Assembly (NCBI RefSeq): GCF_000317065.1
Contig: NC_019701.1
Location: forward strand, 2,199,001-2,263,000
Length of the DNA: 64,000 nt
Source: Pseudanabaena sp. PCC 7367
Lineage (GTDB): Bacteria > Cyanobacteriota > Cyanobacteriia > Pseudanabaenales > Pseudanabaenaceae
Direction of reading: 5' to 3'
Position numbers and translations under genes: made by a program. Positions 1,849-15,421 of this stretch are shown here, one piece after another (position 1 is the stretch's first letter; each line of letters begins with the position of its first letter). Below the pieces are notes generated by a model. It worked only from the letters and a program-made list of their open reading frames with translations, did not search any database and was not told the DNA's origin.

Positions 1849-2535
1849 GTGGAAACTGATTCATCCTTAGTCGTTAAGGTTTGGGGCGACTTTGCTTGCT
1901 TTACCAGACCAGAATTTGGCGCAGAGCGGGTTAGCTATGAGGTGATGACCCCAAGTGCGGCGCGCGGAGTGCTGGAAGCAATTTTTTGGAAGCCCGAATT
2001 TAGCTGGCAAGTCCAGGAAATCCAAGTGCTCAAGCCAATCAAGCGTTTTTCAATTCTGCGCAACGAAATAAATAGCTGGCAAAGCGATCGTTCTGCCAAA
2101 GACCCCGCCTATCACTATTATGCCGATGGCGATCGGGCTCAACGCCATACACTCTGCTTGCGCGAAGTGGCATATATGATCAAAGCCAAGATCAATTTAA
2201 AGCCCCATGCTAGCGCTCATCCGGCCAAATACCGCGATCAATTCCGCCGCCGCGTGGCCAAGGGGCAATGTCATCATCAGCCCTATTTGGGTACCCGTGA
2301 ATTTAGTGCCTTTTTTAGCAAACCAGAAGAAGGCGATCGGCCAATTAAGGGTAGTGAAGGCAATAAAGAATTGGGCTTGATGCTGATGGATCTAGAATTT
2401 GCGATCGACAGCAAAGGGGCAATTACCTATCTTAGTCACGATCCGAATGGTGCAAAGGCGGTGAAGGGGAATGCTAGCCCGAGATTCTTTGGGGCCAGAT
2501 TAGAAAATGGTGTTTTGAGGGTGCCTGAATCATGA
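1849..2535 (+). CDS. cas5: Type I-C Cascade subunit and probable pre-crRNA endonuclease Cas5 (Cas5c/Cas5d)
   Basis: This 228-residue RAMP protein is a Cas5 of subtype I-C, recognised from its N-terminal VKVWGDFACFTRPEF region and the SAARGVLEAIFW segment typical of Cas5d. In I-C systems Cas5 cuts the repeat RNA and then stays on the crRNA 5' handle, replacing Cas6. No cas6 is visible here, which agrees with that role. Start is GTG at 1849. The stop overlaps the cas8c start (ATGA), so the two are translationally coupled. Confidence 0.93.
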   Translation: METDSSLVVKVWGDFACFTRPEFGAERVSYEVMTPSAARGVLEAIFWKPEFSWQVQEIQVLKPIKRFSILRNEINSWQSDRSAKDPAYHYYADGDRAQRHTLCLREVAYMIKAKINLKPHASAHPAKYRDQFRRRVAKGQCHHQPYLGTREFSAFFSKPEEGDRPIKGSEGNKELGLMLMDLEFAIDSKGAITYLSHDPNGAKAVKGNASPRFFGARLENGVLRVPES

Positions 2536-4244
2536 TTCTTAGTCAGCTTTACGAATATTCGCAGCGACAAATGGAACTGCCGCCTGCCATGTATAAGGGA
2601 ACCAAAGTTCGTTGGGTGATCAGTTTATCTACTGAAGGTGAATTCCGAGATTTTATTCCCAGAGGTGGTAATTCAAAAGCAGATAAGCGCGGTACAGAAA
2701 TGACGGCTCCCCATATACTCAGAACTGTTGGTGTCAAACCCAAGCTATTGGCTGATACGGGCGAGTATGTGTTGGGGATTGCCAGGCCAAACTCCAAACC
2801 TCAAAGAGTAAAAGATTGTCATCAACAGTTTAAGGATTTGGTTCAGCAATGTGCAAATTCGACTGAAGAACCTACTATTAGAGCGATCGTAAAATTCCTC
2901 GATACCTGGAACCCAGAAACAGATCGAGGCAAGTTACCAAAAGATTTTGATCCAGCGGATGTGATCACATTTGAGGTTGGTGATACTTTACCTGCTGATG
3001 AAAAAGCAGAACTACATAGGATTGAAGAATTTTGGGCTGATTACACCCTTGGTGATAGCGATAAGTCTATGCCAATTATGACTTGTCTGATTACTGGTGA
3101 GCGTAAACCTGTCGTATCAACATTGCCACTCTTAATTAAGGGTCTGGTGGGTGGACAACCCTCAGGCACAGCAATGGTTTCTGCTAATGCAAAACCCTTT
3201 ACTTCCTATGGCTTAAAAAGCTCTCTTACTTCGCCAATTTCCCGTGATGCTGCCGAGGGCTTTGCCAAAGCCCTCAACCATCTGATTGCTTCACCAAATT
3301 TCCGGCTTAGAATTGGTTCTACCACCTATGTATTTTGGACAAGGGATCAAGAAGATGATTTTGATGCTCTGTCATACCTAGATGATCCTGACCCAGAGAA
3401 AGTAAAGAGTCTATTGAGTTCTCCCTTTACAGGTCAGCAATCATTTAGTGTAGATGAGAACCAGTTCTATTGCCTCACCCTGACGGCGAATAATGCCAGA
3501 GCGGTAGTGCGTGATTGGCTTGAAACAACTGTTCCGGAAGTGAAGCGCAACCTATGTAATTGGTTTGAAGCTCAAAGGATAGTTGCACCTGATGGTGAAG
3601 AGTTCAAATCATGGGGAGTTTATAAACTAGCTGCCAGCGCCTACCGCGATCCCGCCAAGGAAATGCTTCCCGCCGTGCCAAATGCTCTAGTTAAATTTGC
3701 CCTCAGTGGCGATCGTCTGCCTCATGATCTCCTCGCTAGAGTCTTGCGTCGTAATCGTGCCGAGCAAAAAGTCACCTATGCTCGCGTTGCTCTGATCAAA
3801 CTGATTCTGACCAGTCAAAACAAATTCGCCAGAACTGAAATGGAAACATTAAATCCTAATCCAGATTTCCCAGCCATAGCCGATCACACCGCCTATCACT
3901 GTGGTCGATTGCTCGCTGAACTAGAGGCGATTCAAAGAACTGCCCTAGGCAAAATTAATGCCACCCTCACCGATCGCTACTATGGTGCTGTCTCTAGTAC
4001 CCCTGCCAGTGCGTTCCCACCACTTTTGAGTGGCGCTAAAAGAGCCCATTTGCCCAAGCTCAGAAAAAATAGACCTGGTGCCTATCAGGCTCTGGAAAAG
4101 CGCTTAGAGGAAATCATGTCGCATCTTTCTGAATTGGGATTTCCTAAAACCCTGACCTTGCAGCAACAGGGTCTGTTTGCGATCGGCTATTACCATCAAA
4201 AAGCCGCCAATCGTGCCGCTGCCCAAACCAACCAAGCTAGCTAA
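2532..4244 (+). CDS. cas8c: Type I-C large subunit Cas8c (Csd1)
   Basis: This 570-residue protein is Cas8c/Csd1, the large Cascade subunit that reads the PAM and contacts Cas3. Recognition rests on its place between cas5 and cas7, its usual length of about 570-600 residues, and C-terminal family features (DRYYGAVSSTPASAFPPLL and the helical tail after it). The ATG overlaps the cas5 stop by four bases. The C-terminal helical part corresponds to the small subunit Cas11c in known I-C systems; see the separate entry for a candidate internal start. Confidence 0.92.
   Translation: MILSQLYEYSQRQMELPPAMYKGTKVRWVISLSTEGEFRDFIPRGGNSKADKRGTEMTAPHILRTVGVKPKLLADTGEYVLGIARPNSKPQRVKDCHQQFKDLVQQCANSTEEPTIRAIVKFLDTWNPETDRGKLPKDFDPADVITFEVGDTLPADEKAELHRIEEFWADYTLGDSDKSMPIMTCLITGERKPVVSTLPLLIKGLVGGQPSGTAMVSANAKPFTSYGLKSSLTSPISRDAAEGFAKALNHLIASPNFRLRIGSTTYVFWTRDQEDDFDALSYLDDPDPEKVKSLLSSPFTGQQSFSVDENQFYCLTLTANNARAVVRDWLETTVPEVKRNLCNWFEAQRIVAPDGEEFKSWGVYKLAASAYRDPAKEMLPAVPNALVKFALSGDRLPHDLLARVLRRNRAEQKVTYARVALIKLILTSQNKFARTEMETLNPNPDFPAIADHTAYHCGRLLAELEAIQRTALGKINATLTDRYYGAVSSTPASAFPPLLSGAKRAHLPKLRKNRPGAYQALEKRLEEIMSHLSELGFPKTLTLQQQGLFAIGYYHQKAANRAAAQTNQAS
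3840..4244 (+). CDS. Candidate internally translated small subunit Cas11c
   Basis: Type I-C Cascades are known to make Cas11c from an internal start inside cas8c. An in-frame ATG at 3840 would yield a 134-residue, mostly helical C-terminal fragment beginning METLNPNPDF, close to the expected size of about 120-130 residues. No strong Shine-Dalgarno precedes it. The position is inferred from size and location only; a nearby non-ATG codon could be the true start. Confidence 0.35.
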   Translation: METLNPNPDFPAIADHTAYHCGRLLAELEAIQRTALGKINATLTDRYYGAVSSTPASAFPPLLSGAKRAHLPKLRKNRPGAYQALEKRLEEIMSHLSELGFPKTLTLQQQGLFAIGYYHQKAANRAAAQTNQAS

Positions 4245-4261: not shown

Positions 4262-5431
4262 ATGACTAAACATTTCGACCCCAATCGCCGCCATGACTTT
4301 GTTTTACTATTTGATGTCACCGACGGTAATCCCAATGGCGATCCCGATGGCGGTAATATGCCGCGCACTGATCCAGAAACCCTCCAAGGATTAGTGACCG
4401 ATGTCTCGCTTAAACGCAAGATTCGTAATTATGTTGCTACCTATGCTGCCCATGAAGCACCAGATGATCAAAAGGCACGATTGAAAATATTCGTAGAACA
4501 TCATGGTGTTCTCAATGAGCAAATCCGGCTTGCTTATACAGAGCAGGATATTCCCACGGGCAAACCTGCAGATGACAACATTGATGATGCCGAGATTCTT
4601 GCTGGTCTGAGGGCAATCGCTGCTGATTTACCAGAAGCCTTCACCTTTGTCGATCGTGATGATGATGCCAGCGATGATGAAACAGAACCCGCCAATTTAG
4701 CCTATAGTGGCGAACTCTCAGACACCGAAAAGAAAGAAGCGCTGGAGCAACTAGAAGAGGTAATTAGCGAACTGGCGATCGAATCGGCAATTGCCAAAAA
4801 AACGATCACTTTTATTAAAAACCTGACCAAAAAAGCAGGCAAGCCCGACAAAAGCCGTGCCAATGCCGAAAAAGCCCAGGTCTGGATGTGTAATAACTTC
4901 TTTGATGTGCGCATGTTTGGTGCGGTAATGAGCACTGGTCTTAATGCAGGGCAGGTGCGTGGCCCCGTGCAAATCACCTTTGCCCGCTCTATTGATCCAG
5001 TCCTGCCCCAAGATCTGGCCATCACCCGGATGGCAGTGACTACCGAAGCCGATCGTGAAAAGTTACAGACCATGGGTCGTAAAACCTTAATTCCCTATGG
5101 TCTATATCTGGCCTATGGATTCTATTCTCCTTATCTGGCACAAAACACTGGGGTTAACAAATTTGATCTCCAGTTATTCTGGCAAGCCCTGGTAAATATG
5201 TGGGACTTCGATCGCAGTGCCAGTCGAGGGCTAATGGCTCCACGTGGGCTATACGTTTTTACCCATGAATCAAAGCTTGGTAATGCCCCAGCCCATAAGC
5301 TGTTTGAGCGAATTACTGTGCGGCTCAAAAATCCAAATTCTACCCCTCGCTCATTTAAGGATTATGAGTTGATTGTCAATACCGATAATTTACCAGATGC
5401 AATCACGCTTACTGATTTATTAGCAGAATAA
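4262..5431 (+). CDS. cas7: Type I-C Cascade backbone Cas7 (Csd2), enlarged
   Basis: Cas7c polymerises along the crRNA spacer. Family landmarks are FVLLFDVTDGNPNGDPDGG near residue 13, GLVTDVSLKRKIRNYV near 43, FDVRMFGAVMSTGLNAGQVRGPVQ near 214, SIDPVLPQDLAITRMAVTTE, and NAPAHKLF near the C-terminus. The protein is 389 residues, about 100 longer than the usual 280-295. The excess lies between about residues 95 and 200 and is acidic (a D/E-rich run near 131-142) followed by a helical stretch. It starts 17 bp after cas8c. Confidence 0.93.
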   Translation: MTKHFDPNRRHDFVLLFDVTDGNPNGDPDGGNMPRTDPETLQGLVTDVSLKRKIRNYVATYAAHEAPDDQKARLKIFVEHHGVLNEQIRLAYTEQDIPTGKPADDNIDDAEILAGLRAIAADLPEAFTFVDRDDDASDDETEPANLAYSGELSDTEKKEALEQLEEVISELAIESAIAKKTITFIKNLTKKAGKPDKSRANAEKAQVWMCNNFFDVRMFGAVMSTGLNAGQVRGPVQITFARSIDPVLPQDLAITRMAVTTEADREKLQTMGRKTLIPYGLYLAYGFYSPYLAQNTGVNKFDLQLFWQALVNMWDFDRSASRGLMAPRGLYVFTHESKLGNAPAHKLFERITVRLKNPNSTPRSFKDYELIVNTDNLPDAITLTDLLAE

Positions 5432-5435
5432 GCAA

Positions 5436-6068
5436 GTGGAAGTACCTGACACTGATGACTATGTCATGCTTAGCGCGTTGCAGCATTATGTTTTTTGTCC
5501 ACGCCAATGCGCGCTAATTCATGTTGAGCAAACGTTTGATGAGAATATCTATACATTGCGAGGGCAACGGGTACATGAACGCGTGAATATTCCCGAAGGT
5601 GAAAGCTTTGAGGGGATTAGAGTCGAGCGATCGCTAACGCTTTGGTCTCACCAGCATCGGCTTACTGGCATTGCCGATCTAGTTGAGTTTAGCTTTGATC
5701 ATACCCCTTACCCAGTTGAATATAAATCTGGCTCCCGCAAACCCCGCCGCGCTGATGATGTACAACTTTGTGCCCAGGCTTTGTGTCTAGAGGAAATGTT
5801 TGGTATTGCTGTTCCAAAAGGGGCAATTTTTCATCATGCTTCTAAGCGTCGCCGAGAGGTGATATTCGATCCCGACTTGCGATCGCTGGTAATTGAAACT
5901 GCTCACCAAGTACGACAGATGTTAACTCAAAGTATTGTGCCGCCTCCTGTAGCCGATCAACGTTGCCCAGATTGCTCTCTGCTAGATGCCTGTATGCCCC
6001 ATGCGATCCAAGATTTTAGAAAATTGGCTCAGTCAAATAATCCATTTTTTGTTCCTTTAGACCCGTGA
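5436..6068 (+). CDS. cas4: CRISPR adaptation exonuclease Cas4
   Basis: Cas4 is a RecB-like 4Fe-4S nuclease that trims prespacers and helps select PAM-flanked ones for Cas1-Cas2. All key residues are visible: cluster cysteines C21, C177, C180 and C186; H47; and the RecB core D81 (GIADLVE) with E95 and K97 (VEYKSG). At 210 residues it is normal length. Start is GTG, four bases after the cas7 stop, and the gene overlaps cas1 by four bases. Confidence 0.95.
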   Translation: MEVPDTDDYVMLSALQHYVFCPRQCALIHVEQTFDENIYTLRGQRVHERVNIPEGESFEGIRVERSLTLWSHQHRLTGIADLVEFSFDHTPYPVEYKSGSRKPRRADDVQLCAQALCLEEMFGIAVPKGAIFHHASKRRREVIFDPDLRSLVIETAHQVRQMLTQSIVPPPVADQRCPDCSLLDACMPHAIQDFRKLAQSNNPFFVPLDP

Positions 6069-7424: not shown

Positions 7425-7596
7425 GTTTGCGCGAACCTATAGCAAGGGCTAAATCCCTGGGGGGTTCGCGTTCTAATCCCTGTCAGCGTTTCGGCGTTTT
7501 TTGCTAAATTATGGCTTTTAATTTTAACCATGCTAAACCAGATCCGCGTAATTAACTCCTATGATCACCTCTGCCAAAGGATCTGGTATGATTGCG
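7425..7596 (+). promoter_or_regulatory. CRISPR leader
   Basis: The 172 bp between the cas2 stop and the first repeat hold no gene and should contain the array promoter and the integration signals. A nested inverted repeat sits at its cas2-proximal end, and an AT-rich stretch follows at about 7500-7560. Its location beside cas2, with the repeat reading toward ATTGGAAC on the + strand, marks this as the leader end. Confidence 0.75.
7430..7470. promoter_or_regulatory. Nested inverted repeat between cas2 and the array
   Basis: CGCGAACC at 7430-7437 pairs with GGTTCGCG at 7463-7470 (8 bp perfect). An inner AGGG...CCCT pair nests inside. No run of T follows directly, so it is a weak terminator candidate and could instead be a leader element bound by host factors. 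Confidence 0.5.
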
Positions 7597-10500
7597 GTTG
7601 CACCTGGCCTTCGGGCTGGGTGAGGATTGGAACCCACATATTTGATGGCGGATTGTGATCTTCACGCGGTTGCACCTGGCCTTCGGGCTGGGTGAGGATT
7701 GGAACACCGAGGACGACATTTTGGAGTTGTGCCGAAGTGAGGTTGCACCTGGCCTTCGGGCTGGGTGAGGATTGGAACTGGCGATCGAGCGGTAGATAGT
7801 CTGGGCACAGCCACGGTTGCACCTGGCCTTCGGGCTGGGTGAGGATTGGAACAATCACCCAGAGGAGGCGATCGCCAGCTTCGGGCGCGAGGTTGCACCT
7901 GGCCTTCGGGCTGGGTGAGGATTGGAACCTCCGGTGGGCAATCGGTTGTTACTTGTGGCTCAATTGGTTGCACCTGGCCTTCGGGCTGGGTGAGGATTGG
8001 AACGAATCTGTTGTCTGGTGATTCATCGTCACCGGTTGCACCTGGCCTTCGGGCTGGGTGAGGATTGGAACTAACCTTGCCATACGAGGATTAATCAAAG
8101 CTATGTGAGTTGCACCTGGCCTTCGGGCTGGGTGAGGATTGGAACATCGAGCGAGCCAAACAATTTGCGCTGAACTTCCAAGTTGCACCTGGCCTTCGGG
8201 CTGGGTGAGGATTGGAACAATTCCCGTCCCTGGTATTTATCGAAATATTGGCTGTTGCACCTGGCCTTCGGGCTGGGTGAGGATTGGAACTAGTCATCAT
8301 CGGCTTAAGCAATGCAGCGATCGCCGTTGCACCTGGCCTTCGGGCTGGGTGAGGATTGGAACGTTGGCGATCGCACCTGGTAAAACCTGATCTGGCGGTT
8401 GCACCTGGCCTTCGGGCTGGGTGAGGATTGGAACAATCACCCAGAGGAGGCGATCGCCAGCTTCGGGCGTTGCACCTGGCCTTCGGGCTGGGTGAGGATT
8501 GGAACACCTGAGCAGCAATTATCTTTGGTTGGCGATACCGTTGCACCTGGCCTTCGGGCTGGGTGAGGATTGGAACTCTGTACAGTTCGTGGGCGATGTT
8601 ACCTATGTTGTTGCACCTGGCCTTCGGGCTGGGTGAGGATTGGAACAATAAACTGCCTGACGGTGTGAAGAAAAATGTAGGTGGTTGCACCTGGCCTTCG
8701 GGCTGGGTGAGGATTGGAACATGGGCTGCCACTGTTAAGACTACGTGGGCTGAGTACAACTCAAGTTGCACCTGGCCTTCGGGCTGGGTGAGGATTGGAA
8801 CGATAATAGAGAAATCCAAAAATTACCTATTGGCGTTGCACCTGGCCTTCGGGCTGGGTGAGGATTGGAACTCGGTCAGGTCATCGAACTTGATTTTGGT
8901 CAGCGTTGCACCTGGCCTTCGGGCTGGGTGAGGATTGGAACACAGTAATGAGAGCCTTTGACAGGGCGATTGCCGTTGCACCTGGCCTTCGGGCTGGGTG
9001 AGGATTGGAACTAAATATCCAGCGGCTAAAGGCAATGCCGCCAATAGTTGCACCTGGCCTTCGGGCTGGGTGAGGATTGGAACAGTTTGACGAGAATTAC
9101 CCGCAGTGCTTGTTAGGTTGCACCTGGCCTTCGGGCTGGGTGAGGATTGGAACAACTTTCATACCCTTCACCTCATTTACTACACGCCGTGTTGCACCTG
9201 GCCTTCGGGCTGGGTGAGGATTGGAACACCTACGCATCAACGCCACCACTGGCAACAGCAACGGTTGCACCTGGCCTTCGGGCTGGGTGAGGATTGGAAC
9301 ATCTATGCCCCATCTAGCTTGCGATTGCTACATCTGGTTGCACCTGGCCTTCGGGCTGGGTGAGGATTGGAACTTTTCGTTTGCCACTTTAGTTAGTTTT
9401 GGCGATCGGGTTGCACCTGGCCTTCGGGCTGGGTGAGGATTGGAACCAATCGCCCAATATATACTGTGGCCAGAAGCCAAGGTTGCACCTGGCCTTCGGG
9501 CTGGGTGAGGATTGGAACATTGTCACCATGTCGGCGCAGGCATCGCCAACATGTTGCACCTGGCCTTCGGGCTGGGTGAGGATTGGAACGGTGTAATCAC
9601 CACTGACGAAATTATTGTTAGTTAAAGTTGCACCTGGCCTTCGGGCTGGGTGAGGATTGGAACAGGTTCAGTTTGGTTCTGCCGGGATTGGGAAGCCGAT
9701 CGCAGGTTGCACCTGGCCTTCGGGCTGGGTGAGGATTGGAACCTATGCAACTCTTCTGATGCTTCATATCTAGCGATGTTGCACCTGGCCTTCGGGCTGG
9801 GTGAGGATTGGAACAAGGAATTTTGCTCAAGCTCACCCCGAATCAACATTGTTGCACCTGGCCTTCGGGCTGGGTGAGGATTGGAACTTCTATAACGAAT
9901 TGAGGCGGTGGGAGCCTCTCAATGTTGCACCTGGCCTTCGGGCTGGGTGAGGATTGGAACATGTGCTGCCCTACTTGCAGTCTGAGGCAACGGCGGTTGC
10001 ACCTGGCCTTCGGGCTGGGTGAGGATTGGAACTGGACTCAGGCCAACTCATGTTTATTGTGTATATGGTTGCACCTGGCCTTCGGGCTGGGTGAGGATTG
10101 GAACCTTTAACTCGCATTAGGGCGATCTCTTGCGAATCGGTTGCACCTGGCCTTCGGGCTGGGTGAGGATTGGAACATTCAAACTGGCCTCTGATCTGTG
10201 TAGGTTGGCAGGTTGCACCTGGCCTTCGGGCTGGGTGAGGATTGGAACGCTGATTAGCCATTTGCGACCAGCGGTTTTGTGTCAGGTTGCACCTGGCCTT
10301 CGGGCTGGGTGAGGATTGGAACAGGGAAATAACGACATGGCAGTTATTGATATTGAGGTTGCACCTGGCCTTCGGGCTGGGTGAGGATTGGAACTGGTAT
10401 GACTGGCGGCATCCCACTATGCGCCGATGTTGCACCTGGCCTTCGGGCTGGGTGAGGATTGGAACACTCCATAAACTTTATAGACATATTTCAAAGCAAG

Positions 10501-13373
10501 GTTGCACCTGGCCTTCGGGCTGGGTGAGGATTGGAACACTGCAACGCGACGCTAATGGAAACAAGCAGCTAGCGTTGCACCTGGCCTTCGGGCTGGGTGA
10601 GGATTGGAACGATCTCTGGAACAAGAAGGTTCTTGTATGTTGAAGGTTGCACCTGGCCTTCGGGCTGGGTGAGGATTGGAACGATCGCCAGATCTTGAGA
10701 ACCAGCCGAAGTCGCGGGTTGCACCTGGCCTTCGGGCTGGGTGAGGATTGGAACGTTTAGGATCTGTTGGGCAAACTGCTGTCTTGTCTGGTTGCACCTG
10801 GCCTTCGGGCTGGGTGAGGATTGGAACCCAGAGGTGCGCAATTATGCCTAGTTGTTATTTGTGGTTGCACCTGGCCTTCGGGCTGGGTGAGGATTGGAAC
10901 TTGTCCCCGAATAAGCTTTAAAATCTAGCGTCTCTAGTTGCACCTGGCCTTCGGGCTGGGTGAGGATTGGAACATTTCGGTCACTGTTTCGAGGACTTGC
11001 TGTCGAATGTTGCACCTGGCCTTCGGGCTGGGTGAGGATTGGAACCCTTAGTGATCCAAATACTTGCCACTTTCTGGTGGGTTGCACCTGGCCTTCGGGC
11101 TGGGTGAGGATTGGAACAGCCATCCTAAGTCTTGCAAGTGCCTGGGTTTAAGGTTGCACCTGGCCTTCGGGCTGGGTGAGGATTGGAACACTCGCCAGCC
11201 GCTTTGCTAATATTATCACCGCCTCAGTTGCACCTGGCCTTCGGGCTGGGTGAGGATTGGAACATCTCCTCCTCCTGGGCTTGATCAGCCTGCGCAGGTT
11301 GCACCTGGCCTTCGGGCTGGGTGAGGATTGGAACGCGCTGTGTTTAACGCAAATGTGTTGCGCGATCCAGTTGCACCTGGCCTTCGGGCTGGGTGAGGAT
11401 TGGAACATCTTTATTGTTGCTGTATGGTGGGTTGCCATATGTTGCACCTGGCCTTCGGGCTGGGTGAGGATTGGAACATGATGAATGCTTTTTCGTGCGC
11501 ATCTCGCGTTACATTGTTGCACCTGGCCTTCGGGCTGGGTGAGGATTGGAACTGATTGGAGTAGGGCTGTTCTTACGGCCTCGAATGTTGCACCTGGCCT
11601 TCGGGCTGGGTGAGGATTGGAACTATTTGATGGTATGCAGGTTTGTCGTTTTTGAATAAGTTGCACCTGGCCTTCGGGCTGGGTGAGGATTGGAACAAAA
11701 GAACCAAGGCAGGCCGCCTGTGACCTGCACCGTTGCACCTGGCCTTCGGGCTGGGTGAGGATTGGAACAAGAGATCGGCTTTAGCGAACAAGTCGAGGTG
11801 ATCGAAAGTTGCACCTGGCCTTCGGGCTGGGTGAGGATTGGAACAGGGCGATATGTTTGCCAGGATCGTGCAAGACGCTGTTGCACCTGGCCTTCGGGCT
11901 GGGTGAGGATTGGAACAACCAGGGCATTGCAATCTCAACTATTAGATATTGACGTTGCACCTGGCCTTCGGGCTGGGTGAGGATTGGAACAACTGGGTAG
12001 CCGTCAAATGTTTCATAGGTCAACGTTGCACCTGGCCTTCGGGCTGGGTGAGGATTGGAACGACGATATTATTCATTTGTTGACCTCGACCTCTATGTTG
12101 CACCTGGCCTTCGGGCTGGGTGAGGATTGGAACTCGATCTCTTAGTGCTAGCCCCGTCTCACCTTCTAGGTTGCACCTGGCCTTCGGGCTGGGTGAGGAT
12201 TGGAACCCATGTGTTCTTTACCAATGCCAAGACCATCGCAGGTTGCACCTGGCCTTCGGGCTGGGTGAGGATTGGAACAGGCACTCCCAGATTCAACCAA
12301 CCCGCTGCAACATTGTTGCACCTGGCCTTCGGGCTGGGTGAGGATTGGAACAACTTTCATACCCTTCACCTCATTTACTACACGCCGTGTTGCACCTGGC
12401 CTTCGGGCTGGGTGAGGATTGGAACCCAGTAGGGGCGCTCAGTCAATTCAATAAAACCGAGTTGCACCTGGCCTTCGGGCTGGGTGAGGATTGGAACGGG
12501 CAGGGATAGCTGTTATAATCAGAGCGTCAACAGTTGCACCTGGCCTTCGGGCTGGGTGAGGATTGGAACAGCCACACAGCCCAGGGTTAGCTCCACTGCG
12601 GTCGTTGCACCTGGCCTTCGGGCTGGGTGAGGATTGGAACGATCCCACTTCTTTACGCTAACTGGGATCTATTGTTGTTGCACCTGGCCTTCGGGCTGGG
12701 TGAGGATTGGAACCAGGGATATTAACTACAACATCCACCCGCACCGCGTTGCACCTGGCCTTCGGGCTGGGTGAGGATTGGAACAAAGATAAACCTGGCG
12801 AGCGTTTTTTTGTGTCTTGGTAGTTGCACCTGGCCTTCGGGCTGGGTGAGGATTGGAACAAGTTTGTCATTTTATTGCTGGCACAATTGTCAAAAGGTTG
12901 CACCTGGCCTTCGGGCTGGGTGAGGATTGGAACATCGTTGCCTCTAGCTCAGTTAGTTTGCTCATCGGTTGCACCTGGCCTTCGGGCTGGGTGAGGATTG
13001 GAACTGTCTTAACAACCTGGTGAAACACAAAGTTGTTGGTGTTGCACCTGGCCTTCGGGCTGGGTGAGGATTGGAACTTTAACTCTTTTAATTTGTTCTC
13101 TCTCCTCTGTGGGGTTGCACCTGGCCTTCGGGCTGGGTGAGGATTGGAACAGCCCTTTCCCTGCCAACAAATTATCTCTGTTGTCAATGTTGCACCTGGC
13201 CTTCGGGCTGGGTGAGGATTGGAACTTCTTTTGATTCGATCTGCAAGCCGCGTAAGCCTCGATAGGTTGCACCTGGCCTTCGGGCTGGGTGAGGATTGGA
13301 ACAGACCCAGCGATCGCATCCGCGCGATTGTCCCAAGTTGCACCTGGCCTTCGGGCTGGGTGAGGATTGGAAC
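7597..13373 (+). CRISPR. CRISPR array, leader-proximal block: 80 repeats of 37 bp
   Basis: Eighty copies of a 37-bp repeat (starts GTTGCACC, ends GGATTGGAAC) appear identical on reading. Spacers are mostly 33-38 nt, with extremes of 31 and 44. Each repeat can fold into a 9-bp stem, CACCTGGCC with GGCTGGGTG (two G-U pairs), closed by a UUCG tetraloop. The ATTGGAAC end resembles the ATTGAAAC 5' handle of other type I repeats, so crRNAs read on the + strand, away from the leader. Spacer 4 (7853-7891) and spacer 12 (8435-8468) share their first 34 nt; spacer 22 (9154-9190) equals spacer 66 (12352-12388). Confidence 0.99.
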
Positions 13374-13397
13374 ATTGCGATTTTTAGATGCTCAATA

Positions 13398-13416
13398 CAG
13401 CGCATTTCAGATTAGA
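13398..13416 (+). repeat. IS630 terminal inverted repeat, left
   Basis: It begins CAGCGCATTT directly after the TA at 13396-13397, nine bases beyond the transposase stop, and matches the opposite end at 13 of 19 positions. Confidence 0.8.
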
Positions 13417-13979
13417 GACGCACAGAGATCGGCCTCAAGGAACCAGCCCATAATATCGTCTAGAGAAACCTTGGCAAGAGCGTTAGAAATAGCTTTATGC
13501 AAGTCATCATAGTCCCTGGCCGCCCAAGAGCGTAGAAACTGTTTCACCTTTGACCACAGCATCTCAATCGGATTTAGCTCTGGTGAATAAGGCGGTAAGT
13601 AAACCAAGTGAGCACCGACGGACTCAATTAACTCTCGCACAGGATCAACCTTATGTACACTGAGGTTATCCATAATCACAATTGCACCAGACCATAGGTT
13701 AGGCAGCAATTTATCTTTGAGATAGGACACGAAAGTATCAGTATTATTGCTACCAGTAAAAGTAAAATTAGTCAGCACACCGCGTAATGCCATAGCCCCA
13801 ATTATAGTAACGTTTTTGCCTCGAGCAAGTGGTTTACTAGCATAGGCTCTCTCACCTAGAGTAGCCCTTGCATACAACCTGGTCATTGCCAGGTTAACGC
13901 CTGTCTCATCAATGAATACCAGGTTTTCCATTGCCTGTGGCCAAAGCCAGCGTTGATAATCTGCTCTCAGCTGTTGCAC
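13407..13979 (-). CDS. IS630 transposase, C-terminal DDE catalytic part (orfB)
   Basis: This is the catalytic half of an IS630-type DDE transposase. The three acidic residues sit in FIDETG, IVIMDNLSVHK and PPYSPELNPIEMLW. The GTG at 13979 is only nominal: the same frame is open upstream through KKTFHADERDTERVQQ, which continues the family's linker. Expression therefore probably needs a frame change from orfA at the A9 run (14012-14020). All catalytic motifs are intact, so the element may be active. Confidence 0.9.
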   Translation of the reverse strand: MQQLRADYQRWLWPQAMENLVFIDETGVNLAMTRLYARATLGERAYASKPLARGKNVTIIGAMALRGVLTNFTFTGSNNTDTFVSYLKDKLLPNLWSGAIVIMDNLSVHKVDPVRELIESVGAHLVYLPPYSPELNPIEMLWSKVKQFLRSWAARDYDDLHKAISNALAKVSLDDIMGWFLEADLCASLI

Positions 13980-13995
13980 TCGTTCTGTATCCCTT

Positions 13996-14361
13996 TCATC
14001 GGCGTGAAAAGTTTTTTTTTCGAGTTAACTCCTGCCTTTGCAACGTACGGCACATGGTTGGTTCTGATACCCTGATGCCAGTACGTTCATACATTTGCTC
14101 ACATAACTCCGACAGTGTGGCATCATTTTTAGCGGCTACTAACTTTGCTAACTCAGCCAGAGCAGCTTCATTAAACTTGGCTTTTGCTCCTGCCTTGTAT
14201 GGAATTGGCTCAACTGAACCAGTAGTGCGATAAAGTTGGAGCAGCTGATGGACACTGTCTTTACTAACGCTGAATCGGGTTGCCAACTCACGGATTGAAC
14301 CTTCTTTATTTTCGTACGCTGTGACTATGCGCTGACGCAAATCTAGAGAATGGGCTCTCAT
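13996..14361 (-). CDS. IS630 transposase, N-terminal DNA-binding part (orfA)
   Basis: This 121-residue protein begins MRAHSLDLRQRIVTAYENKEG and carries the helix-turn-helix region of IS630/Tc1 transposases (REL ATRFSVSKDSVHQLL, then a second HTH). It ends in QELTRKKNFSRR just past a run of nine A on the coding strand. If the run were read as eight A, the protein would continue into orfB as KKTFHADERD. Transcriptional slippage at such runs is known for IS630 elements; a simple inactivating frameshift is the alternative. Confidence 0.88.
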   Translation of the reverse strand: MRAHSLDLRQRIVTAYENKEGSIRELATRFSVSKDSVHQLLQLYRTTGSVEPIPYKAGAKAKFNEAALAELAKLVAAKNDATLSELCEQMYERTGIRVSEPTMCRTLQRQELTRKKNFSRR

Positions 14362-14398
14362 ACTTTTTGATTCTTACTTTACTCCTATCATGTCATAT

Positions 14399-14417
14399 TC
14401 TATTGCGGAATCTGCTG
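14399..14417 (-). repeat. IS630 terminal inverted repeat, right
   Basis: Read on the minus strand from the TA at 14418-14419 it begins CAGCAGATTCC and pairs with the left end over 19 bp. Confidence 0.8.
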
Positions 14418-14432
14418 TATCAAGCCCAAGAA

Positions 14433-15421
14433 GTTGCACCTGGCCTTCGGGCTGGGTGAGGATTGGAACTTTATGGCTTCCAGATCGATTGCGATAGGTC
14501 TAAGGTTGCACCTGGCCTTCGGGCTGGGTGAGGATTGGAACAGAAATCCTAATGTGGTGCTTAATTCCGAAGTTTTGACGTTGCACCTGGCCTTCGGGCT
14601 GGGTGAGGATTGGAACTTTATGGCTTCCAGATCGATTGCGATAGGTCTAAGGTTGCACCTGGCCTTCGGGCTGGGTGAGGATTGGAACCAGCCAATCAGA
14701 CTTTCTTCGAGAGCTTGTACCCAGTTGCACCTGGCCTTCGGGCTGGGTGAGGATTGGAACAAGTATTGAGGGTGGGATCACGTTAACATTTCGCATGTTG
14801 CACCTGGCCTTCGGGCTGGGTGAGGATTGGAACAAGTATTGAGGGTGGGATCACGTTAACATTTCGCATGTTGCACCTGGCCTTCGGGCTGGGTGAGGAT
14901 TGGAACAGTCTGGGAAACGTCAAAAGTGGCTACACCTCTAAAGTTGCACCTGGCCTTCGGGCTGGGTGAGGATTGGAACCTTTCGAATCGGTTTCTTTCG
15001 CTATCAAACGAATAGGGTTGCACCTGGCCTTCGGGCTGGGTGAGGATTGGAACTAATTTACCACTGGCTATCCACTGGTTACCCATCAGAGTTGCACCTG
15101 GCCTTCGGGCTGGGTGAGGATTGGAACATCATCAGATACATCGTGGCTACACTTAGGCGATCGCGTTGCACCTGGCCTTCGGGCTGGGTGAGGATTGGAA
15201 CGGTCTATGTCCATGCAATAGATGGTTTGCTAGACGTTGCACCTGGCCTTCGGGCTGGGTGAGGATTGGAACACCGATTAAAACCGGAAGTGGCCGATTT
15301 GATCCGTACTGTTGCACCTGGCCTTCGGGCTGGGTGAGGATTGGAACAGGATCAAATCTCAATACTATCCAGCCTATTTAAGATGTTGCACCTGGCCTTC
15401 GGGCTGGGTGAGGATTGGAAC
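14433..15421 (+). CRISPR. CRISPR array, leader-distal block: 14 repeats
   Basis: This block continues the same 37-bp repeat beyond the IS. The distal end is rich in duplications: spacers at 14470-14504 and 14617-14651 are identical, and those at 14761-14796 and 14834-14869 are an identical adjacent pair. The terminal repeat at 15385-15421 is intact, unlike the degenerate last repeat common in other arrays. The block may depend on transcription through the IS. Confidence 0.98.

What the first reader, a model, noticed from the sequence alone, without database searches (positions are those of the whole stretch)
7853..8468. Same protospacer edge acquired twice with different 3' ends
Spacer 4 (7853-7891, 39 nt) and spacer 12 (8435-8468, 34 nt) begin identically and share 34 nt, but spacer 4 carries five extra bases (GCGAG) at its 3' end. 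Array recombination would copy a spacer at constant length. A shared 5' (PAM-side) edge with a ragged distal end fits two independent captures with loose trimming. The shared part contains GCGATCGC, so the target is likely cyanobacterial, a cyanophage or a plasmid.
Basis: partly seen in the sequence, partly recalled or inferred. Interest (0 to 1): 0.65.

Follow-up and report, generated by a model that had tools for sequence, protein, structure and literature searches.

The report
CRISPR target captured twice, ragged end
A cyanobacterium's CRISPR memory holds the same foreign DNA fragment twice, cut at an identical front end but a different back end, most likely because it was captured on two separate occasions; this looks normal for this CRISPR type, but a second such pair spans two unrelated arrays and hints that one capture machine fills both.

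Summary
Confirmed: in a 94-repeat type I-C array, spacer 4 (39 nt) and spacer 12 (34 nt) share their first 34 nt; spacer 4 adds GCGAG before an intact repeat. The reading as two independent captures, fixed at the PAM-side edge and loose at the far edge, is supported, but by comparison, not by a protospacer. None was found in phage, plasmid or IMG/VR records or in 386 cyanobacterial genomes.

Two further tests support it. (1) Among 1,686 spacers of about 65 other Cas1c-linked arrays, 8 length-differing pairs keep the 5' edge and differ at the 3' end; none does the reverse. Five of the 8 carry internal mismatches, as captures of variant targets would. (2) I-C spacer 35 recurs in a distant orphan array with an unrelated repeat: same first base, one extra base at the end. 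Repeat recombination cannot make that.

The genome has one Cas1, one Cas2 and one confident Cas4, all I-C; its type III-D effector has no adaptation genes. So the I-C module probably also fed that orphan array. Such sharing is known; I-C with type III and different repeats is not among the pairings in Vink et al. 2021. The focal pair is ordinary I-C behaviour; the cross-array pair is the more interesting part.

The parts
7853..7891 (+). spacer 4, 39 nt, longer capture
8435..8468 (+). spacer 12, 34 nt, identical to the first 34 nt of spacer 4
7887..7891 (+). the five extra 3' bases GCGAG of spacer 4
   Evidence: sequence
7597..15421 (+). type I-C CRISPR array, 94 perfect 37-nt repeats GTTGCACCTGGCCTTCGGGCTGGGTGAGGATTGGAAC, 93 spacers (one split by an IS)
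7425..7596 (+). leader region between cas2 and the first repeat
   Evidence: position between cas2 stop and first repeat; leader function inferred
10105..10139 (+). spacer 35, 35 nt; recurs with one extra 3' base in the orphan array at genome C2:3411951-3411986
9154..9190 (+). spacer 22, exact copy of spacer 66
12352..12388 (+). spacer 66, exact copy of spacer 22
14470..14504 (+). spacer 81, exact copy of spacer 83 (14617-14651)
14761..14796 (+). spacer 85, exact copy of adjacent spacer 86 (14834-14869)
5436..6068 (+). cas4
   Evidence: TIGR00372, E 1.1e-36; only match over the family cut-off in the genome
6065..7096 (+). cas1 (Cas1c)
   Evidence: TIGR03640, E 2.3e-151; only Cas1 in the genome
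7131..7424 (+). cas2
   Evidence: TIGR01573, E 8e-18; only Cas2 in the genome
2..5431 (+). cas3 (2-1720, may start before the window), cas5c (1849-2535), cas8c/csd1 (2532-4244), cas7/csd2 (4262-5431)

Best explanation
Spacers 4 and 12 are two separate captures of the same stretch of a foreign element by the I-C adaptation complex Cas4-Cas1-Cas2. Cas4 cuts the prespacer exactly at the PAM, so both captures begin at the same base. The far end is trimmed loosely, so one ends five bases later. Shown here: the shared 5' edge and ragged 3' edge, the same asymmetry in other I-C arrays, and one cross-array case in which recombination is excluded. Inferred: the PAM, the role of Cas4, and that both captures came from an external target. 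The same complex probably also inserted a spacer from one shared target into an orphan array of a different repeat family.
For: Exact shared 5' edge, difference flush with the repeat, no duplicated neighbours. Eight length-differing pairs in other Cas1c-linked arrays are 5'-fixed and 3'-ragged (L059 6/7, L076 45/76 and 56/63, L089 8/9, L094 21/25, L113 14/44, L124 26/71, L144 20/21) against none 3'-fixed and 5'-ragged; five of them carry internal mismatches (sign test p 0.008). I-C spacer 35 and spacer 10 of the orphan array at C2:3411179-3412685 share the same first base, with one extra 3' T, under unrelated repeats. The extra T differs from the G that follows spacer 35 in the I-C array, so the orphan copy was not taken from the I-C array. 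Biochemistry of I-C Cas4 (PMC6519985): cleavage is precise at the PAM and not seen at the other end. In type I-F, most odd-length spacers map to canonical PAMs, so the distal cut is the loose one (PMC5059440).
Against: No protospacer was found, so neither the PAM nor the presence of GCGAG after the shared 34 nt is demonstrated. Three of the four within-array repeats here are exact copies; with a 0.19 chance that two random I-C spacers have the same length, at least some of those are probably recombination copies, so copying does occur in this array. A length gap of 5 or more is seen in only 8% of random spacer pairs. Two pairs in other arrays are off by one at the 5' edge (L130 19/21, L132 2/18), so the edge is not absolute.
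Confidence: 0.85

Rival explanations
1. One spacer unit was copied by recombination between repeats, and a later 5-bp deletion (or insertion) shortened or lengthened one copy.
For: Exact copies exist in this array (22/66, 81/83, 85/86), so copying happens. The difference allows a 1-base microhomology (GGGC[GCGAG]GTTGC).
Against: Neighbouring units were not copied along; the indel would have to fall flush with the repeat at the distal end, leaving the repeat whole. The same 3'-only raggedness recurs in other arrays, five times in pairs that also differ by internal mismatches, and once between arrays with different repeats.
Confidence: 0.1
2. Sequencing or assembly error at one of the two copies in a repetitive array.
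For: Long CRISPR arrays are hard to assemble.
Against: The genome is held as two contigs at 100% completeness; the difference is not in a homopolymer, and all 94 repeats are identical. No reads could be inspected.
Confidence: 0.04
3. For the cross-array pair only: the orphan array was filled by its own adaptation module, with the same PAM, that has since been lost.
For: Leaders of the I-C array and the orphan family A arrays show no significant similarity (best p 0.07); spacer lengths of family A are slightly longer than I-C (36.7 against 35.7, p 0.027).
Against: No second Cas1 or Cas2 remains in a complete genome. All 31 family A repeats are identical and the two family A leaders are conserved, as in arrays used recently. 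Orphan family B arrays have clearly longer spacers (40.2), unlike A and I-C.
Confidence: 0.3

Closest known systems
Type I-C Cas4-Cas1-Cas2 adaptation (Bacillus halodurans, PMC6519985)
   Same: Same gene set; precise cut at the PAM end, with the distal end not cut by Cas4
   Different: Biochemical work in vitro; here the outcome is read in natural arrays. What defines the distal end was left open there
PAM-distal imprecision in type I-F (Pectobacterium atrosepticum, PMC5059440)
   Same: Odd-length spacers map to canonical PAMs, so the distal cut is the loose one
   Different: Another subtype, without Cas4; measured in an acquisition experiment
Shared acquisition machinery with distinct repeats, type I with type III (Vink et al. 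2021, PMC8482600)
   Same: A type III effector without its own adaptation genes, its own repeats, spacers compatible with the type I system
   Different: Reported pairings with distinct repeats are I-B/III and I-E/III; I-C/III was reported only with shared repeats. Here PAM logos could not be made; the link is one shared protospacer
Type VI-B array served in trans by II-C Cas1 (Flavobacterium columnare, PMC8092290)
   Same: Adaptation-less RNA-targeting system filled by another system's Cas1; shared acquisition motif
   Different: Different types; there tested with a cas1 deletion

Membership tests
Type I-C CRISPR-Cas | cas3, cas5c, cas8c, cas7, cas4, cas1c, cas2 in one operon | tested here: met
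   NCBIfam matches over cut-off for all seven genes
Type I-C CRISPR-Cas | Array beside cas2 with an I-C type repeat ending in the GAAC handle | tested here: met
   (repeats of relatives such as L068 ATTGCATCCAGTCTTCGGGCTGGATGAGGATTGGAAC)
Type I-C CRISPR-Cas | TTC-type PAM on the 5' side of the protospacer | tested here: inconclusive
   No protospacer found for the focal spacers
Independent recapture with PAM-anchored edge and ragged distal edge | Same 5' edge, different 3' end, in pairs that recombination cannot make | tested here: met
   I-C spacer 35 and the orphan array spacer; mismatch-bearing pairs in other arrays
Independent recapture with PAM-anchored edge and ragged distal edge | Both lengths lie on one protospacer next to a PAM | tested here: inconclusive
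   Searched for, no protospacer found
Type III-D CRISPR-Cas (second effector of the genome) | Cas10 with Csx10 and Csx7-type RAMP proteins | tested here: met
   C2:540-550 kb: Csx10 TIGR02674 E 8e-120, Csx7 TIGR02581 E 1.9e-74, Cas10 TIGR02577 E 1.3e-40, Cas6 TIGR01877 E 2.7e-24
Shared acquisition, distinct repeats (type I / type III) | Type III effector without its own Cas1-Cas2, in a genome with a type I adaptation module | tested here: met
   Single Cas1, Cas2 and confident Cas4, all I-C
Shared acquisition, distinct repeats (type I / type III) | Different repeat sequences but spacers with the same PAM | tested here: inconclusive
   Repeats differ; PAM unknown, though one protospacer is shared with an identical PAM-side edge
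Shared acquisition, distinct repeats (type I / type III) | Loss of type III acquisition when the type I cas1 is deleted | not testable with these tools
   Needs an experiment

The most novel reading that the evidence does not exclude
A single type I-C Cas4-Cas1-Cas2 module fills both its own array and orphan arrays with an unrelated repeat and leader that serve a type III-D effector, so that the same protospacer is stored for DNA attack and for RNA attack.
Probability: 0.6. Interest if true: 0.5.

Novelty: new member of a known kind. Interest (0 to 1): 0.4.

Why it matters
Same-target pairs inside natural arrays give a way to read the precision of each end of spacer capture without knowing the target. 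In type I-C the PAM-side end proves nearly fixed and the distal end loose. What defines the distal end was left open in the I-C biochemistry paper read here, so this bears on that question. The cross-array pair offers a concrete case in which one adaptation module may supply a DNA-targeting and an RNA-targeting system with unrelated repeats, which a cas1 deletion would test directly.

Tried and rejected
Protospacer hunt, all negative: exact 34-mer in IMG/VR; blastn of spacer 4 against phages and plasmids (only partial matches in unrelated hosts at E 0.1 or worse); whole array against phages and plasmids (the plasmid hits are repeat similarity); degenerate codon patterns for both open frames of spacer 4 and one of spacer 35 in IMG/VR; relaxed patterns gave one hit each, rejected as chance because only 21-22 of 39 bases agree. 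All I-C and family A spacers against 386 cyanobacterial genomes: the one hit to spacer 4 (24 nt in G027, L047) looks like chance around the common GCGATCGC motif in a chromosomal gene region of L047 (the script meant to inspect it failed).

The idea that the orphan copy was captured from the I-C array itself was rejected, because its extra 3' T differs from the G that follows spacer 35 there. Leader similarity between the I-C array and the orphan family A as support for sharing: tested, not significant. Family A repeat in other cyanobacteria, to see with which cas1 it travels: found only in this genome. Terminal base composition: I-C and family A both have more 3' G than family B (p about 0.04), too weak and not seen strongly in other I-C arrays, so not used as proof.

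Full report
Observation. The array was parsed with its repeat: 94 identical 37-nt repeats from 7597 to 15421 and 93 spacers, one of them split by an insertion sequence. Spacers 4 and 12 are as described: the first 34 nt are identical and spacer 4 has GCGAG more at its 3' end; the repeats on both sides of both units are perfect. The shared 34-mer occurs nowhere else in the genome. The array follows a complete type I-C operon (cas3, cas5c, cas8c, cas7, cas4, cas1c, cas2), with cas2 on the left, so the leader is taken to be on the left and spacer 4 is the younger of the two (inference from operon order).

Copy or recapture. The array also holds three exact repeats: 22/66, 81/83 and the adjacent 85/86. 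I-C spacer lengths vary (31-44 nt, mean 35.7), so two random spacers have the same length with probability 0.19 and differ by 5 or more with probability 0.08. Three of four pairs being equal is more than chance captures would give (my estimate from 0.19: about 0.02), so some of the exact pairs are probably recombination copies. This does not explain the unequal pair 4/12, whose neighbours are not duplicated.

A comparison set. Cas1c relatives were collected from plasmids and from a GTDB-based genome collection, and their neighbouring arrays were extracted (1,686 spacers in about 65 arrays, a few of them possibly not I-C). All pairs within a locus sharing 14 nt or more were listed. Twenty-four are identical, many of them adjacent or in blocks, as recombination would give; one of these (L086 14/1) may be an artefact of the array finder splitting one array. 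Where lengths differ, I classified the pairs from the printed sequences, allowing internal mismatches: in eight the first bases are in register and the 3' ends differ by 1-3 nt (L059 6/7, L076 45/76, L076 56/63, L089 8/9, L094 21/25, L113 14/44, L124 26/71, L144 20/21). None has the 3' ends in register with ragged 5' ends. Two are off by one at the 5' edge (L130 19/21, L132 2/18). A sign test on 8:0 gives p 0.008, and on 10:0 with the two pairs of this genome p 0.002; these treat the pairs as independent. Five of the eight carry internal mismatches, as expected if variant targets were captured separately. The pattern in the finding is therefore general for type I-C.

A case without recombination. 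Comparing the array with its own genome gave one unexpected match: I-C spacer 35 (window 10105-10139) recurs at C2:3411951-3411986. There it lies in another array with repeat ATTGCAACGCTCCTTTACCCCGCAAGGGGACTGAAAC. The spacer begins at the same base and in the same orientation relative to the repeat's 3' end, and is one base longer (T). Different repeats exclude recombination between repeats, and the T excludes capture from the I-C array, where G follows. So the same target was captured at least twice in this lineage with the same front edge and a different back edge.

Who filled the orphan array. A pattern scan of the genome found six orphan arrays in two repeat families: family A (29 spacers, two arrays) and family B (39 spacers, four arrays, one of them with a second repeat type). 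The type III-D effector (Cas10, Csx10, Csx7-type proteins, Cas6) lies at C2:540-550 kb without adaptation genes. The genome has one Cas1, one Cas2 and one Cas4 over the family cut-off, all in the I-C operon. The simplest reading is that the I-C module inserts into family A as well. It is weakened by the lack of leader similarity and by the absence of PAM data, and it rests on one shared protospacer. Family A spacer lengths (36.7) are close to I-C (35.7), family B is longer (40.2).

Target. No protospacer was found by any route.

Known context. I-C Cas4 cleaves precisely upstream of the PAM and shows no strong activity at other sites; what sets the distal end was left open (PMC6519985). In type I-F, variant-length spacers mostly map to canonical PAMs, so the distal cut is the loose one (PMC5059440). 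[quoted passage not shown] In trans acquisition by an adaptation-less RNA-targeting system was tested in Flavobacterium (PMC8092290). The focal pair is thus a clean new example of known behaviour, and the cross-array pair a probable new pairing of a known arrangement.

Noticed in passing
window 13374-14432: An IS with two overlapping transposase frames (IS630-like by memory of the family) sits inside spacer 80; five further near-identical copies lie elsewhere in the genome, three of them on contig C1, so it is probably active.
   Followed up: partly
window 7597-15421: All 94 repeats are identical, including the last one before 15421; the usual degenerate terminal repeat is missing, while the orphan family B arrays and the A3411 array have one.
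   Followed up: no
genome C2:3106132-3107207 (L043): An orphan array with two repeat types in series: four leader-proximal repeats CTTGACATCCCAACTACCCCGAAAGGGGACTGAAAC, then family B repeats.
   Followed up: no
window 7634-15384 (all spacers): First spacer base is A in 45 of 89 distinct I-C spacers (expected 24%, p 1e-7); other I-C arrays show the same trend (489 of 1617, p 7e-31). Cause unknown; could be a capture preference beside the PAM.
   Followed up: partly
window 7427-7470: Inverted repeat GCGCGAACC ... GGTTCGCG just after cas2, possibly a terminator or leader element.
   Followed up: no
L130 spacers 19/21, L132 spacers 2/18, L094 42/45, L113 3/23: Same-target pairs shifted by one base at the 5' edge (L130, L132), and overlapping captures offset by 15-19 nt (L094, L113).
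   Followed up: no
L060, L065 (plasmids of Allomeiothermus silvanus and Paenibacillus amylolyticus): I-C and III-B effector genes lie next to each other near one cas4-cas1-cas2 set, another possible case of a shared adaptation module.
   Followed up: no
genome C2:806496-806972: A second, weaker Cas4-like (RecB-type) protein below the family cut-off, about 35 kb from the smaller family A array.
   Followed up: no
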